Shown here: positions 38,834 through 46,615 of the stretch, in pieces
How the letters are laid out: the number at the start of each line of letters is the position of its first letter
Numbering within the stretch: position 1 is the first letter of the stretch
Origin: Parcubacteria group bacterium CG1_02_58_44
Lineage (GTDB): Bacteria; Patescibacteriota; Patescibacteriia; SG8-24
NCBI GenBank assembly: GCA_001872545.1
Contig: MNWN01000003.1
Span: 1-46,615 of the forward strand
Direction: 5' to 3'
Length of the DNA stretch: 46,615 nt
Notes under the pieces: model-generated
What the model saw: only the letters and a program-made list of their open reading frames with translations
The model's database searches: none
What the model was told of the DNA's origin: nothing
Position numbers and translations under genes: made by a program

Positions 38834-40192
38834 ATGCCGATGACGGACGAGACAAAAGAGGATTTGATTTCGGTCGATCCGGCTTCGGTCGCGGACGATC
38901 AGCTGTCCGAATTGCCTCAGGCCAGCCCGCACATCCATGAGACCAGAAAGTTCCCCGATGGGTTTCTTTGGGGGACGGCCACTGCCGCCCATCAGGTGGA
39001 GGGTGGCAACGTCAACTGCGACTGGTGCCGTTGGGAGCAGGCCGGCCACGTGCTCAGAGGTCAGGTGTCAGGTCAGGCCTGCGATCAGTTTAATCGATAC
39101 GAGGAGGATTTCGACTTGGCGGCGGAACTTGGCAACAATGCTCATCGGCTGTCGATCGAATGGGCCCGCATCGAGCCGGAGGACGGTCGATTCGACCAGG
39201 AGGCGATCCTGCACTACCGTCGCGTGCTGGAGGCGCTTCGGAAAAGGGGACTCTCCCCCATGGTTACGCTGTGGCACTTCACCCTGCCGCAGTGGTTCGC
39301 CGACCGCGGCGGCTGGGAGTGGTCGGGAGCAGTGTCGAGGTTTGCGCGCTATTCGGAGAAGATGGCGGAAGAGCTCGGCGACTTGATCGACTTGTGGGTG
39401 ACCATCAACGAGCCGATGATCTATCTCGGACAGTCGTACGGAACCGGCGTATGGCCGCCCGGCAAGAAGGGCATCTGGCGGGTACTGCGTGTTTTTAGCC
39501 GACTGGTGCGGGCCCATCGCGCGTCCTACGACCGGCTGCACCGACAGCTGGACCGGGATGGCTATCGGGCTCGGGTCGGAATCGCAAAGAACGTGGTCAC
39601 CTACGAGCCGTACCGCCGCTATTCCGAGCTGGACAGCGTCTTCATTCGTCTGGCGGACCGGCTGTTCAACCATCAGTTCTTCATCTGGACCAGAGGCAAG
39701 CACGACTTCATCGGCGTCAACTACTACTTTCATTACCGCATCAGGTATCGGCCGACCAAGATTTCGTCGTTCTTCCACGAGGTGCACACCGAAAATCGCG
39801 AGGTCAGCGATCTGGGCTGGGAGATCAACCCCGACGGCATGTTCGACACGCTGATGTCGATGAGTCGCTATGGGCTGCCGGTCTACGTGACCGAGAACGG
39901 CATCGCCAGCGCCGACGACGGCAAGCGTCCGCGGGCGCTCGTGTCCATGGTCAAGGAGATCTACCACGCCATAAAGGCCGGGGTGGACGTGCGCGGCTAC
40001 TATCATTGGTCGCTCCTGGACAACTTCGAGTGGGAGAAGGGCTACGACGGGAAGTTCGGTCTGGTCGCCGTCGATTTCAGGAATCAACAGCGTCAACCGC
40101 GACGAAGCTATTACGTCTATCAGGATATTTGCCGCGAGAACGGGATACGTCATGATCTGCTGCGCTTTTTGGGACATGGAGTTCGTTGGTGA
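38834..40192 (+). CDS. Glycoside hydrolase family 1 (beta-glucosidase-like)
   Basis: FPDGFLWGTATAAHQVEGG, WVTINEPMIY, YVTENGIAS, GYYHWSLLDNFEWEKGYDGKFGLVAVDF. Confidence 0.97.
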   Translation: MPMTDETKEDLISVDPASVADDQLSELPQASPHIHETRKFPDGFLWGTATAAHQVEGGNVNCDWCRWEQAGHVLRGQVSGQACDQFNRYEEDFDLAAELGNNAHRLSIEWARIEPEDGRFDQEAILHYRRVLEALRKRGLSPMVTLWHFTLPQWFADRGGWEWSGAVSRFARYSEKMAEELGDLIDLWVTINEPMIYLGQSYGTGVWPPGKKGIWRVLRVFSRLVRAHRASYDRLHRQLDRDGYRARVGIAKNVVTYEPYRRYSELDSVFIRLADRLFNHQFFIWTRGKHDFIGVNYYFHYRIRYRPTKISSFFHEVHTENREVSDLGWEINPDGMFDTLMSMSRYGLPVYVTENGIASADDGKRPRALVSMVKEIYHAIKAGVDVRGYYHWSLLDNFEWEKGYDGKFGLVAVDFRNQQRQPRRSYYVYQDICRENGIRHDLLRFLGHGVRW

Positions 40193-40273
40193 CGGACATT
40201 TCGGTCTGGGGTGGTTCGCTTCAGAATAGACCGATTGGGGAGTTATCTGGGTAGAAATCTGATACGGAAAAAC

Positions 40274-41623
40274 ATGAAACTTACTTTTTACGGTGCGGCC
40301 GGCGAGGTGACCGGCTCCAAGACGCTGATCGAGGCCGGTGGCCGGCGCATACTGCTCGACTGCGGCCTGATTCAGGGTGAGGGGTCCGACCTGCGTAATC
40401 GGGCGCCTTGGGCCTTCGATCCCAAGTCGATCGACGCGGTCATCGTGACCCACGCCCACTTGGATCACATAGGTCTTCTGCCTAGGTTGGTCAAGGACGG
40501 CTATGGCGGTCCGGTTTTCGCCACCGAACCGACCAGGGAGATTTCCCATATCATGTGGGAGGACGAGGCTAAGGTCCGCGACGAGGATACCGAGGCCGGC
40601 ATCGAGCCGCTGTTCGGACAGGAGGAGATCGATGCAACCTACAGATTGTTGAGGGGGGCGAATTATGGCGAGAGTGTTCGGGTGGCGCCGGGTTTCGATG
40701 TTGTCTTTCGCGACGCTGGACATGTCTTGGGTTCGGCCTTCGTCGAGATGCGGGTCGACGGACTGACTTTGGTCGGTTCTGGTGACATCGGCAACGACCG
40801 TGTTCCGATATTGCGCGATACCGAACCGATGGCCGAGGCCGATGCCGTAATTCTTGAGTCGACCTACGGCAACCGGACCCACGACGGCAGCGAGGCCGGA
40901 CGTGAGGATCTGCTGCGTCGGGCCCTGATCCAGACGGCGGAACGAAAGGCAGTGCTGATGATCCCGGCCTTCTCGCTCGAGAGGACGCAGGAGATACTTT
41001 ACGAACTCAATGGCTTGGTGGAGGGCGGAGCGGTTCCCAAGATGCCGATCTTCCTCGACAGTCCGTTGGCCACGTCCCTGTTGCCGATCTTCAAGTCGCA
41101 TCCCGAATGTTTCGACGAACAGGCCAAGGTCTTGCGCGCCATGGGCGACGACTTCTTCAGCTTTCCCGGACTGAAGATTACGCACAATTACCGCAATTCG
41201 TTGGCTATCGACAAGGTCAAGTCCCCCAAAGTGATAATCGCCGGCAGTGGCATGATGAGCGACGGTCGGATCATGCGTCACCTCGGACGTTACCTTCAGG
41301 ACTCGAACAATCTGCTGCTGGTCATCGGTTTCCAGGGGCAGGGGACGATCGGGCGGCAGATCGTCGACGGGGCGGAAGCGGTGATGATTGACGGACACAC
41401 GGTTCCGGTTCGGGCCGAAATGCGGCAGATCGAATCGTTTTCGGCCCATGGCGACCGCGACAAGTTGCTGCACTGGTTGAAGTCCTCGGGACGGACTCCA
41501 GGACACGTTTTTTTGAATCACGGCGAGCCGGAGGCGGCTGAGTCGCTGGCCGAGGGCGTTAGACAGACCGGCGAGGCCGGGCAGGTGGACGTGGCTATGG
41601 AGGGGAAGGAGTACGAGTTTTGA
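40274..41623 (+). CDS. MBL-fold/beta-CASP RNA-processing exonuclease family
   Basis: GAAGEVTGSKTLIEAGGRRILLDCGLIQG, THAHLDHIG, LESTYGNRTH, ESFSAHGDRDKLLHWL. Confidence 0.95.
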   Translation: MKLTFYGAAGEVTGSKTLIEAGGRRILLDCGLIQGEGSDLRNRAPWAFDPKSIDAVIVTHAHLDHIGLLPRLVKDGYGGPVFATEPTREISHIMWEDEAKVRDEDTEAGIEPLFGQEEIDATYRLLRGANYGESVRVAPGFDVVFRDAGHVLGSAFVEMRVDGLTLVGSGDIGNDRVPILRDTEPMAEADAVILESTYGNRTHDGSEAGREDLLRRALIQTAERKAVLMIPAFSLERTQEILYELNGLVEGGAVPKMPIFLDSPLATSLLPIFKSHPECFDEQAKVLRAMGDDFFSFPGLKITHNYRNSLAIDKVKSPKVIIAGSGMMSDGRIMRHLGRYLQDSNNLLLVIGFQGQGTIGRQIVDGAEAVMIDGHTVPVRAEMRQIESFSAHGDRDKLLHWLKSSGRTPGHVFLNHGEPEAAESLAEGVRQTGEAGQVDVAMEGKEYEF

Positions 41624-41855: not shown

Positions 41856-42935
41856 ATGGCCAACCAAAATCTTACCAACGCCAAGCGGGCCAAGAACGAC
41901 GAGTTCTATACCCAGTACAGCGACATCCAGAAGGAGATCGAGGCCTACCTGGAATACGACTCCGACGCCTTTCGCGGCAAAATCGTGTACTGCAACTGCG
42001 ACGATCCGTTCGAGAGCAACTTCTTCCGCTATTTCGTGCTCAGCTTCAGGAAGCTGGGACTCAGGCAGCTCATCACCACCAGCTATAGACCCTCGCCGGT
42101 GGCCAACACCCAGTTGGGCCTGTTCGGCGACGACAAGACGCTTGCGGGTCCGAAGGGCCGGCCAAAGGTGACCGCCAACAAGTTCATCGTGAGCGACGTG
42201 GGCGACGTGGACGGCGACGGCGAGTTCACTCTGAAGGACGTGGCCCAGCAGCTGAAGGCGAACCGGCACAACGAGTGGGCGCCGCTTGCGGGCGACGGCG
42301 AGTTCCGGAGCGACGAGTGCGTCGACCTCCTGAAGCGGTCCGACGTCGTGGTGACCAACCCGCCGTTCAGCCTGTTCCGCGAGTACGTCCGGCAGCTGGT
42401 CGACCACGGCAAGAGGTTCGTGATCATCGGCAACATGAACGCGATCACCTACAAGGAAATCTTCCCGTTGATAAAGGAAAACAAGATGTGGTTGGGAAAT
42501 GGTTTTCACGCGGGGAACGCTTACTTCTATACACCAAACGCGCGTGATTTCTCGTCGGGTGTCTATGATGAGAAAACTGGTCTGGTAAAGTTCCGTAATG
42601 TCTGCTGGTTCACCAACCTCGACCATGGGCGTCGCCATCAGCCGCTGCCGCTCATGACGATGGAGGAGAACCTGAAGTACAGCAAGCACAAGGAGATCAG
42701 GAACAGGAAGGCGTACGACCGGTACGACAACTACGACGCCATCGAGGTGCCGTTCACCGACTCAATCCCCAGCGACCACGACGGCGTGATGGGCGTGCCG
42801 ATCAGCTTTTTGGACAAATACAATCCCAGTCAGTTTGATATTCTAAAATTTAGACACGGTAACGACGATAAAGACTTGCGACTAAAGGATGGAAAATGTC
42901 CGTATTTTAGAATTTTAATTAGGCATAAGAAGTAA
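41856..42935 (+). CDS. EcoRI-family adenine-specific DNA methyltransferase
   Basis: NAKRAKNDEFYTQYSDIQKEIEAYL, VYCNCDDPFESNFFRYF, VVVTNPPFSLFREYV, CWFTNLDHGRRHQPLPL. Confidence 0.92.
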   Translation: MANQNLTNAKRAKNDEFYTQYSDIQKEIEAYLEYDSDAFRGKIVYCNCDDPFESNFFRYFVLSFRKLGLRQLITTSYRPSPVANTQLGLFGDDKTLAGPKGRPKVTANKFIVSDVGDVDGDGEFTLKDVAQQLKANRHNEWAPLAGDGEFRSDECVDLLKRSDVVVTNPPFSLFREYVRQLVDHGKRFVIIGNMNAITYKEIFPLIKENKMWLGNGFHAGNAYFYTPNARDFSSGVYDEKTGLVKFRNVCWFTNLDHGRRHQPLPLMTMEENLKYSKHKEIRNRKAYDRYDNYDAIEVPFTDSIPSDHDGVMGVPISFLDKYNPSQFDILKFRHGNDDKDLRLKDGKCPYFRILIRHKK

Positions 42936-42961: not shown

Positions 42962-43564
42962 ATGGTGAGCAATACATGGAAAGAGGGGGATGTGAAAAAT
43001 ATAAATTTTCATCCGGCTCTAAAAGATATAGAAAACATGTTTTTTCTTTTTCTTCTCTCAGTAAGAATGTTGTCTGATCCCGAAATGCAATCTCTTATTA
43101 AGACAAAAAATTCTATAAATGATGGTTACGAAATTTTTAATGAGATACTCGAAAAAGTTAATCAGTCAATGAATTTAAAAATAGAAATTCATGATCGCAA
43201 ATTTATTTCAAGGCTAGATTTATCTGGCCAAATGGTTTTTTTGGGTAAAGCAATGGCAGTTTTGACCTATGACTATCTTCTTTCTTCGCCATATAACAAT
43301 GTTTTAAGTAACGAAGATCAATTTATTTTTCTTAAATTTATTAGAAATGGAGCTGCTCACCACAACAAATTTAATCTAAAAGATGAAAAAGGTGAGTGGA
43401 AAGTTGCAGAGGGTGAAATTTTTGAATGGGACGGCCTAAAAATAAGCAGAAGTTTACATGGCAAAAAAGTTTTTAATGATTTTATAACATTATTTAATGT
43501 TTTCTCTTTAGCAAAACATTTTTCCGATAGGCTAAAATCAATTGATCTAGCCCCATCTCATTAA
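42962..43564 (+). CDS. AT-rich hypothetical protein, candidate HEPN-domain RNase
   Basis: All-helical-looking 200 aa ORF with FIRNGAAHHNKF (R-x4-H); composition far more AT-rich than flanks. Confidence 0.6.
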   Translation: MVSNTWKEGDVKNINFHPALKDIENMFFLFLLSVRMLSDPEMQSLIKTKNSINDGYEIFNEILEKVNQSMNLKIEIHDRKFISRLDLSGQMVFLGKAMAVLTYDYLLSSPYNNVLSNEDQFIFLKFIRNGAAHHNKFNLKDEKGEWKVAEGEIFEWDGLKISRSLHGKKVFNDFITLFNVFSLAKHFSDRLKSIDLAPSH

Positions 43565-43599: not shown

Positions 43600-44613
43600 A
43601 TGAACAAACGAACTCAAAACAACCAAATTATCATCTACAAAACTTCGCATGACGAGGTGGAGTTGAAGGTTCGTTTTGAGAAAGAAGATGTCTGGCTGAC
43701 GCAAAATCAGATTGCCTTGCTTTTCGGAACGCAGCGGCCGGCCATTACCAAGCACCTGAGCAACATCTTTAAGAGTGGTGAACTTGAAGCAGAAGTGGTT
43801 AGTTCCGTTTTGGAACACACCACCAGACACGGCGCGATCCGGGGAAAAATGCAGACCAAGAACGTAAAGTTCTACAATTTGGACGCAATCATCTCGGTCG
43901 GCTATCGGGTCAACTCTCGAAAGGCCACCCAATTTCGCATCTGGGCGACGAGGGTGCTGAGACAGTATCTGGTCCGCGGATATGCCATCAACGAGTGGCG
44001 GCTGCTGGAGGCGAAAAGCAGGTTCGGCGAACTGCAGGAGGCGGTGCTGTTCCTGCAGAGGCAGTCCGGCAGGGAATCGCTGAAGGGGCAGGAGGCGGAG
44101 GTGCTGAACCTGCTGGCCGACTACTCCAAGACGCTGTCCCTGCTGGGGAAATACGACAAGAGAAGGTTGGATGAGGTGAAGGGCACGAAGTCCAAGTCGG
44201 TTCTGCGGTATGAGGACTGCGTCAGAATCATCCGCGAGCTAAAGAAGGGACTGGTCGCCAAGAAAGAGGCTGGTGACCTGTTCGGTTCGGAAAGGGGCCG
44301 GGCCCTCGAGGGCATCGTCGTCGGGCTGTACCAGACGTTCGGCAAGAAGGAACTGTATCCGACCGTCGAGGACAAGGCGGCGCACCTGCTCTACCTGACC
44401 GTCAAGGACCATCCGTTCATCGACGGCAACAAGCGTTCGGCGGCCTTCCTGTTCGTCTACTTTCTGGACCGGTCGAACCATCTGTTCAAGAAGTCCGGCG
44501 GGCGTAAGATCAACGACAACGGCCTGGCCGCACTGTCCCTGCTGGTCGCCGAGAGCGACCCGAAGGAGAAGGAGACAATGATCAAGATCATCAAGAACCT
44601 AATTGCGGAATAA
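43600..44613 (+). CDS. RhuM-Fic/Doc fusion protein
   Basis: DVWLTQNQIALLFGTQRPAITKHLSNIF...AIISVGYRVNSRKATQFRIWATRVLRQYLVRGYAIN plus HPFIDGNKRSAAFLF. Confidence 0.95.
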   Translation: MNKRTQNNQIIIYKTSHDEVELKVRFEKEDVWLTQNQIALLFGTQRPAITKHLSNIFKSGELEAEVVSSVLEHTTRHGAIRGKMQTKNVKFYNLDAIISVGYRVNSRKATQFRIWATRVLRQYLVRGYAINEWRLLEAKSRFGELQEAVLFLQRQSGRESLKGQEAEVLNLLADYSKTLSLLGKYDKRRLDEVKGTKSKSVLRYEDCVRIIRELKKGLVAKKEAGDLFGSERGRALEGIVVGLYQTFGKKELYPTVEDKAAHLLYLTVKDHPFIDGNKRSAAFLFVYFLDRSNHLFKKSGGRKINDNGLAALSLLVAESDPKEKETMIKIIKNLIAE

Positions 44614-44623
44614 GCTTCCTGCC

Positions 44624-45792
44624 ATGAAAACGACCCTAAAAACCGACCTCACCGTCAAGGACATCTGCGAGGGGTTCGTCTACAGCGAACTCGAGGGCAA
44701 GGGCCTGTTTGGCCTGTCCGGCCGGCTGACCGTCCAGCCGGAGTACCAGCGGAACTACATCTACGCCTCGGACGGCGGCAAGCGGGAGATGGCCGTGGTC
44801 GAGTCGGTCCTCAAGGGCTACCCGATCGGGCTGATCTACTTCAACCGGGTCTCTGAAAAGGGCCTAGAGGTCCTGGACGGGCAGCAGCGCATCACCAGCC
44901 TCGGGCGGTTCGTGACCGAGAAGTTCGCCATCCGGGACGAGAACGGGCTGCCGCAGAACTTCAGCGGCCTGGCGAAGGACAAGCGGGACCGGATCATGGG
45001 GACTAGACTCCTCGTCTACGAGTGCGAGGGGACGGAGAGCGAGATCAAGGAATGGTTCAGGACGATCAACATCGCCGGCGTCCCGCTCAACAGCCAGGAG
45101 CTTTTGAACGCGGTGTATTCCGGGCCGTTCGTGACGCTCGCCAAGGAGGAGTTTAGCGACAGCCAGAACGCCAACGTCCAGAAGTGGAGCGCGTACGTGT
45201 CCGGCAGCGCCAACCGGCGGACTTTCTGGAGTGCGCGCTGGACTGGGTGAGCCGGGGCGACGTCGGCGGCTACATGAGCCGTCACCGCTTCGACCGGGAC
45301 ATCGCCGAGCTGAAGAGGTACTTCGGCACCGTGATCGACTGGGTCTCCGGCGTGTTCACCGACGTCGAGGGCGAGATGCGCGGCCTTGAGTGGGGACGGC
45401 TCTACGAGGAGTACCACAAAAAGTCGTATGATCCGGCCGCGGTGTCGGCCGAGATGCACCGGCTCTATGCCGATCCGTATGTGAAGAACCGCCGGGGCGT
45501 CTTCGAGTACGTCCTCGGCGGGTCGGTCGACACAAAACTGCTTGACGTCAGGGTCTTCGACGAGGCGACCAAGAAGTCGGTCTACGCGATACAGACCGCC
45601 AAGGCCAAGGAAAAGGACGAGTCAAACTGTCCGCTGTGTGCCGTTGGACACGACGCCGCCAAGGGTAAGGTCTGGGGCTTCGGCGAGATGGATGCCGACC
45701 ACGTGGCGGCGTGGAGTAAGGGTGGTGCTACCTTAATCAAAAACTGCCAGATGCTCTGCAAGACCCACAATCGGGCCAAGGGCAATCGGTAG
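44624..45792 (+). CDS. DUF262 (ParB/Srx-like) - HNH endonuclease protein, split by a frameshift near 45225
   Basis: ORF 44624-45250: VQPEYQRNYIYASDGGKREMAVVESVLKGYPIGLIYF...EVLDGQQRITSL; next frame to 45792: DFLECALDWVSRG...CPLCAVGHD...MDADHVAAWSKGGATLIKNCQMLCKTHNRAKGNR. Confidence 0.85.
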
Positions 45793-46423: not shown

Positions 46424-46615
46424 TCATCCACCAAATTTCCCGAGGAAGTCGAGCAGTCGCTCGATTTTTTCTTTCTCGGAATCCTTGCGGCGGTTGTACC
46501 GCCACACCTCCTCTGAGACGAACAGGCCGAGCCTATCGCGGCGGATCCCGCCGGTTGTCTTGAGCCCGCGCTTCAGGTAGCCCCAGAAGCCCTCCATGCC
46601 GTTCGAGTGCACCTC
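46424..46615 (-). CDS. IS1595/ISXO2-like transposase, C-terminal part (runs off window)
   Basis: EVHSNGMEGFWGYLKRGLKTTGGIRRDRLGLFVSEEVWRYNRRKDSEKEKIERLLDFLGKFGG*. Confidence 0.8.
   Translation of the reverse strand, partial: EVHSNGMEGFWGYLKRGLKTTGGIRRDRLGLFVSEEVWRYNRRKDSEKEKIERLLDFLGKFGG

What the first reader, a model, noticed from the sequence alone, without database searches (positions are those of the whole stretch)
42962..43564. AT-rich ORF with HEPN-type R-x4-H motif in the slot where a restriction enzyme is expected
Seen: LKFIRNGAAHHNKFNL in a helical 200-aa protein directly after the MTase. RN..AH is the recognised HEPN catalytic signature. No MNT nucleotidyltransferase antitoxin is adjacent. 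It could be a suicide RNase guarding the modification system, conceptually like PrrC/RloC.
Basis: partly seen in the sequence, partly recalled or inferred. Interest (0 to 1): 0.65.

Follow-up and report, generated by a model that had tools for sequence, protein, structure and literature searches.

The report
Suicide-RNase-like gene inside restriction operons
A small protein carrying the signature of HEPN RNA-cutting enzymes sits inside a bacterial DNA-defence operon, and its previously unnamed family turns up repeatedly inside five different types of restriction-modification operon in tiny-genome (Patescibacteria) bacteria, which suggests a shared "second-line" self-shutdown enzyme.

Summary
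The ORF (42962-43564, 200 aa, 30% GC in a 57% GC window) and its R128-N-G-A-A-H133 motif are real. Fifteen independent relatives, all with Patescibacteria titles, as unnamed 'bacterium' MAGs or in the window genome's own phylum, keep F123, I127, R128, N129, A132 and H133 invariant at 34% mean column identity. No Pfam, NCBIfam, PADLOC or PHROG family covers them. Weak motif-centred matches to four HEPN RNase families, plus AlphaFold models with the motif at the end of the third core helix, support HEPN. Foldseek and profile-profile comparison gave no confirmation.

'In the slot where a restriction enzyme is expected' is only half right. The probable cognate enzyme, DUF262-HNH, lies two genes downstream (44603-45792), frame-broken. 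The HEPN gene is inserted between M and R, followed by an intact RhuM-Fic gene.

Six of 15 members directly neighbour R-M genes of five kinds: EcoRI-type MTase (window), Type ISP, Type III (twice, between mod and res), Type I (between hsdS and hsdR) and Eco47II-type. About 0.2 would be expected.

Best reading: a stand-alone HEPN RNase acting as a PrrC-like second line behind R-M. HEPN genes in R-M operons are known (Anantharaman 2013); this family and its indifference to R-M type appear new. Activity is untested.

The parts
41856..42935 (+). EcoRI-family adenine-specific DNA methyltransferase (M); its last ~125 bp are AT-rich like the HEPN gene
   Evidence: Pfam EcoRI_methylase PF13651 E 2.2e-122; PADLOC MTase_II E 2e-107; GC drops from 0.67 to 0.35 near 42800
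42962..43564 (+). HEPN-like predicted RNase, 200 aa, invariant R128-N129-x-x-A132-H133
   Evidence: ORF; 15-member family with invariant motif; AlphaFold2 pLDDT 89.2, pTM 0.83, motif at end of helix 119-132
43600..44613 (+). RhuM N-terminal domain plus Fic/DOC domain with intact HPFIDGNKR motif; PADLOC candidate family PDC-S23
   Evidence: PF13310 E 3e-22, PF02661 E 2e-10; PDC-S23 E 1e-120; motif read from translation
44603..45250 (+). N-terminal half of the probable cognate restriction enzyme (DUF262/GmrSD_N)
   Evidence: PF03235 E 3e-19; PADLOC REase_II PDLC03418 E 6e-41; homologue found in 47-48 of 80 viral-contig loci carrying this MTase type, usually directly downstream as one ORF
45184..45792 (+). 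C-terminal half (HNH) of the same restriction enzyme, in another reading frame: the gene is frame-broken in this assembly
   Evidence: PF01844 E 1e-6; PADLOC PDLC03418 positions 198-371, E 8e-37; continuous ORF in relatives such as L038, L047, L049, L050

Best explanation
The gene encodes a stand-alone HEPN-family endoribonuclease that serves as a second line of defence attached to restriction-modification operons. Shown: an invariant HEPN-type catalytic motif in a compact protein predicted to be mainly helical; recurrent placement inside R-M operons of five unrelated kinds, often between the modification and restriction genes with gaps of 2-30 bp. Inferred: it dimerises, and R128/N129/H133 from the two subunits form a metal-independent RNA-cutting site. 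It is kept quiet while the R-M system is healthy and released when a phage blocks or overwhelms restriction, when unmodified or broken DNA accumulates, or when the operon is lost; it then cuts RNA (tRNA is the obvious candidate) and shuts the cell down. Because its R-M partners share no subunit, the restraint is probably generic (a shared feature such as the MTase fold, or a signal such as DNA breaks or under-modified DNA) rather than one dedicated protein contact.
For: Invariant F123, I127, R128, N129, A132, H133 over 15 relatives at 34% mean column identity. Weak matches to HEPN RNase families: pEK499_p136 in 5 of 12 members, best E 0.001, and Abi_2 E 0.022, AbiD E 0.0012, Cas13e in 3 of 15, E 0.022. 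AlphaFold2 models of two diverged members (pLDDT 89 and 89) put the motif at the end of a helix before a loop with a beta-hairpin and a last helix, as described for HEPN and Csx1 in PMC3710099. R-M neighbours: window M-HEPN-RhuM/Fic-R; L102 Type ISP enzyme then HEPN, 11-bp gap; L103 and L107 mod-HEPN-res; L111 HEPN-hsdR with an hsdS 3' end just upstream; L131 HEPN - Eco47II REase - m5C MTase. 6 of 15 loci, binomial p about 2e-8 at a 1.3% background (background). The R-M association needs at least three changes on the tree.
Against: No significant fold match in three Foldseek searches, no PDB profile hit, and hhalign against one pEK499_p136 protein gave a probability of only 0.7%. Nine of 15 relatives are not directly beside R-M genes. 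In the window the REase is frame-broken, so the system guarded there may be dead or the assembly wrong. RNase activity, dimerisation, toxicity and regulation are untested.
Confidence: 0.58

Rival explanations
1. A HEPN RNase that is an independent mobile defence or toxin cassette (abortive infection on its own trigger) and merely lands in defence islands; R-M neighbours are hitch-hiking partners and do not regulate it.
For: 9 of 15 relatives sit beside other genes: OLD-type ATPase/TOPRIM (L134), AlbA_2 (L109), GIY-YIG T5orf172 (L106), DUF1643 and BRO-N (L108), NYN or NUDIX (L130, L133, L110). The partner R-M proteins are unrelated to each other. The AT-rich segment looks recently recombined in.
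Against: Tight packing inside operons: 2-bp gaps on both sides in L107, apparent overlap with mod in L103, 11 bp in L102, and hsdS-HEPN-hsdR in L111. A landing bias alone would not favour the space between M and R genes.
Confidence: 0.25
2. A HEPN-fold protein that binds RNA or protein without cutting, for example an adaptor or a regulator of R-M gene expression.
For: Some HEPN families lack activity and probably act as RNA binders (PMC3710099). Size and position between M and R would suit a controller.
Against: Families thought to be inactive have usually lost the R-x4-6-H motif (PMC3710099); here R, N and H are invariant.
Confidence: 0.1
3. Not a HEPN domain at all: a helical protein with a coincidental RNxxAH motif.
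For: No significant database, Foldseek or profile-profile match.
Against: The invariant residues are the catalytic ones of HEPN; weak hits in three libraries include HEPN RNase families; the predicted topology and motif position agree with HEPN.
Confidence: 0.07

Closest known systems
PrrC / EcoPrrI latent anticodon nuclease
   Same: HEPN nuclease gene within an R-M operon. L111 has hsdS-HEPN-hsdR, the relative position recalled for prrC (the paper read says only that PrrC is in a neighbourhood encoding hsdMSR). RhuM and Fic/Doc genes keep company with PrrC/RloC in R-M loci (PMC3710099).
   Different: No ABC ATPase domain; 200 aa; found with Type I, II, III and ISP systems; confined to Patescibacteria so far as found here.
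HEPN pEK499_p136 family (PF18736)
   Same: Stand-alone small HEPN with R-N-x-x-A-H; some members in R-M operons (PMC3710099); weak match to 5 of 12 family members, best E 0.001.
   Different: No significant match; hhalign probability 0.7% with the type protein; the present family is longer, with a beta-hairpin region between motif and last helix.
Abi_2/AbiD/AbiF HEPN family
   Same: HEPN RNase of abortive infection, sometimes embedded in R-M operons (PMC3710099); single weak matches.
   Different: Below cut-offs; matched by one member only.
HEPN-MNT toxin-antitoxin modules
   Same: HEPN toxin with the R-x4-H motif.
   Different: No MNT nucleotidyltransferase among the neighbouring genes examined.

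Membership tests
HEPN superfamily | R-[polar]-x3-5-H catalytic motif conserved across the family | tested here: met
   R128-N129-x3-H133 invariant in 15 relatives
HEPN superfamily | Motif at the end of helix 3 / start of the loop to helix 4 of a helical bundle | tested here: met
   AlphaFold2 secondary structure of two members: helix 119-132 with R128 and H133 at its end, last helix 177-196; helix 114-136 with R132/H137 in L107; definition in PMC3710099.
HEPN superfamily | Acidic residue in helix 2 near the motif | tested here: inconclusive
   D104 lies in helix 88-107 and is acidic in 13 of 15 relatives (D in 11, E in 2); proximity to the motif could not be measured
HEPN superfamily | Statistically significant similarity to a known HEPN family or structure | tested here: inconclusive
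   Best E 0.001 in one of 12 members, weak hits to four HEPN families; hhalign and Foldseek negative
HEPN superfamily | Metal-independent RNase activity of a dimer | not testable with these tools
   needs protein; no complex prediction available
PrrC/RloC | N-terminal ABC ATPase fused to the HEPN domain | tested here: not met
   200-aa protein, no ATPase domain found
PrrC/RloC | Gene embedded in an R-M locus (PrrC) | tested here: met
   window and five relatives
HEPN-MNT toxin-antitoxin | Adjacent MNT nucleotidyltransferase antitoxin | tested here: not met
   window neighbours are an MTase and RhuM-Fic; none seen among relatives' neighbours that were scanned
pEK499_p136 (PF18736) | Match above Pfam's gathering score | tested here: not met
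   best E only 0.001 among members; L134 scores 15.1 bits against a cut-off of 26.6; no family hit in 192 genomes of the phylum (its control genomes did not ring either)
EcoRI-type MTase / DUF262-HNH restriction system | DUF262-HNH gene next to the MTase | tested here: met
   homologue in 47-48 of 80 viral-contig loci of this MTase type, usually directly downstream; present at window 44603-45792 but frame-broken and two genes away

The most novel reading that the evidence does not exclude
A Patescibacteria-specific HEPN RNase acts as a universal plug-in guard: the same enzyme family monitors Type I, II, III and ISP restriction systems through a shared signal rather than a dedicated protein partner, and in the window the guard (with RhuM-Fic) may survive as an addiction module although the restriction enzyme is broken.
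Probability: 0.2. Interest if true: 0.75.

Novelty: new member of a known kind. Interest (0 to 1): 0.5.

Why it matters
HEPN RNases guarding R-M systems have been predicted broadly (PMC3710099) but, to my knowledge, shown in detail mainly for PrrC. Here an ATPase-free 200-aa family occurs inside five R-M kinds, including an hsdS-HEPN-hsdR arrangement and two mod-HEPN-res operons with minimal spacing. That makes a compact test set for whether one RNase can be controlled by unrelated R-M machines, and it adds a defence layer to tiny-genome bacteria thought to be poor in defence.

Tried and rejected
HEPN as a replacement REase: rejected, the DUF262-HNH enzyme is present downstream. A known Pfam/NCBIfam/PADLOC/PHROG family: none significant. 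Plasmid, phage or viral-contig homologues: none found; a first genome scan with the single protein also found none. Foldseek against PDB (two models) and BFVD: no meaningful match; the reported TM-scores (about 0.1-0.25, rmsd mostly 10-20 A) are so poor for confident helical models that I treat these searches as uninformative rather than negative. PDB profile search: only NUS1 at E 1, not at the motif. hhalign with pEK499_p136: not significant, but the template was a single sequence. eRF1_1 and MTase_II weak hits to the window protein were dismissed as chance: isolated and away from the motif. Most low-scoring hits (L007-L021) did not join the family on iteration. RhuM-Fic homologues were not found in the viral MTase loci.

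Full report
Observation. The ORF at 42962-43564 (+) is real: 200 codons, ATG start 27 bp after the stop of an EcoRI-family adenine MTase (PF13651, E 2e-122) and 36 bp before a RhuM-Fic gene. It is AT-rich (GC 0.30, GC3 0.24) in a 57% GC window. The low-GC stretch starts near 42800, inside the last ~125 bp of the MTase gene, and stops just after 43600, so the HEPN gene probably arrived together with the 3' end of a related MTase gene (inference). A loose R-x4-6-H is common by chance (47% of shuffles); RNxxAH is not (0.06%).

Family. No curated family covers the protein and no plasmid, phage or viral-contig homologue was found. A search of 380 genomes of the same phylum found relatives, and a profile found more in genome contigs and in the class. 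The named records are Nomurabacteria, Moranbacteria/Moraniibacteriota, Microgenomates, Peregrinibacteria and 'Patescibacteria group'; others are unnamed 'bacterium' MAGs. Matching contig lengths (G178:C2 and VMGD01000018.1, 29583 bp; G226:C33 and PFOM01000036.1, 76198 bp) place the window's own 1.06-Mb genome in the same phylum. Fifteen independent members align with six invariant columns, F123 I127 R128 N129 A132 H133, and near-invariant W156, I161 and L183, at 34% mean column identity.

Fold. AlphaFold2 gave confident monomers for the window protein (pLDDT 89.2, pTM 0.83) and for a 31%-identical member (88.7, 0.83). In both, R/N/H lie at the end of a helix followed by a loop with a short beta-hairpin and a final long helix; an acidic residue (D104; D or E in 13 of 15) is in the preceding long helix. 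Anantharaman et al. [quoted passage not shown] Weak hits in three libraries include HEPN RNase families: pEK499_p136 (5 of 12 members, best E 0.001) and Abi_2, AbiD, Cas13e. Foldseek, a PDB profile search and hhalign against one pEK499_p136 protein did not confirm it. HEPN membership is therefore likely but not statistically proven here. I could not compute the R-H distance or a dimer.

Neighbourhood in the window. Among 80 viral-contig loci carrying this MTase type, 47-48 encode a relative of the DUF262-HNH protein, usually directly downstream and as one ORF. The same gene lies at 44603-45792 in the window, matching PADLOC restriction-enzyme model PDLC03418 in two halves that are in different reading frames, so it is frame-broken here (genuine or assembly error). 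The order is therefore M - HEPN - RhuM/Fic - (broken) R. The HEPN gene is not a stand-in for the restriction enzyme; it is an insertion between M and R. Other cargo can occupy that space: L037 and L044 carry another inserted gene of about 283 codons there. The RhuM-Fic gene keeps an intact Fic motif (HPFIDGNKR).

Neighbourhood in relatives. L102: directly after a Type ISP enzyme (Type_ISP_C E 3e-86; 11-bp gap). L103: between Type III mod and res. L107: between Type III mod and res with 2-bp gaps on both sides. L111: upstream of a Type I hsdR (134-bp gap) and just downstream of a 42-aa hsdS C-terminus (PADLOC Specificity_I E 3e-8); from general knowledge prrC has the same place in EcoPrrI, while the paper read says only that PrrC lies in a neighbourhood that also encodes hsdMSR. 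L131: upstream of an Eco47II-type REase and an m5C MTase. So 6 of 15 loci touch R-M genes of five kinds. From I estimate about three R-M-type genes per ~0.9-Mb genome in this phylum, so about 0.6% of genes would have an R-M neighbour; doubled to 1.3% to be generous, the binomial probability of 6 or more in 15 is 2e-8, and at 3% it is 3e-6. The counts behind this are rough, R-M genes cluster in islands, and L102/L103 are close relatives, but their R-M neighbours differ. On the tree the R-M label is scattered and well-supported branches force at least three changes, so the association recurs rather than being inherited once. The other nine loci have mixed neighbours: OLD-type ATPase-TOPRIM (L134), AlbA_2 (L109), GIY-YIG (L106), DUF1643 and BRO-N (L108), NYN or NUDIX (L130, L133, L110).

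Mechanism. Most likely a HEPN endoribonuclease that stays inactive while the linked R-M system works and attacks cellular RNA when it is blocked, overwhelmed or lost. The motif, fold topology and operon placement are shown or predicted here; RNase activity, target, dimer site and restraint are inferred by analogy to PrrC. Because the R-M partners share no common subunit, a single dedicated contact of the PrrC kind cannot explain all members; a generic signal or a common MTase feature is more economical. A free-standing abortive-infection cassette with hitch-hiking R-M neighbours is the main rival.

Known or new. HEPN genes in R-M operons, also together with RhuM and Fic/Doc, were described in 2013: at least 16 HEPN clades linked to R-M (PMC3710099). 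My literature searches found no report of HEPN in Patescibacteria R-M operons (open-access library only). This is a new, unnamed family of a known kind; its ATPase-free form and indifference to R-M type are the interesting parts.

Noticed in passing
window 44603-45792: The DUF262-HNH restriction enzyme gene is split into two frames near 45200-45250, while viral-contig relatives (e.g. L047, L049) have one continuous ORF; the MTase may be an orphan here, or the MAG has an indel error.
   Followed up: partly
window 42800-42935: The 3' end of the otherwise GC-rich MTase gene has the low GC of the HEPN gene, suggesting recombination within the MTase gene brought in the HEPN gene.
   Followed up: partly
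window 43600-44613: RhuM-Fic fusion with intact Fic motif, matching PADLOC candidate defence family PDC-S23 (E 1e-120).
   Followed up: no
L037 2469-3320, L044 5762-6613: Another gene of about 283 codons, near-identical in both, is inserted between EcoRI-type MTase and DUF262-HNH, so this inter-gene space takes different cargo. By eye it resembles BRO-N-type proteins; no family scan was run on it.
   Followed up: no
window 46424-46615: IS1595-like transposase fragment on the - strand at the contig end (weak, E 0.0015).
   Followed up: no
L134 7441-9129: A relative of the HEPN gene is followed by an OLD-family ATPase-TOPRIM gene, a possible separate two-gene defence unit.
   Followed up: no
window 39068-41521 (-): An 817-aa open frame antisense to the GH1 and beta-CASP genes; most likely a GC-driven spurious ORF.
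   Followed up: no
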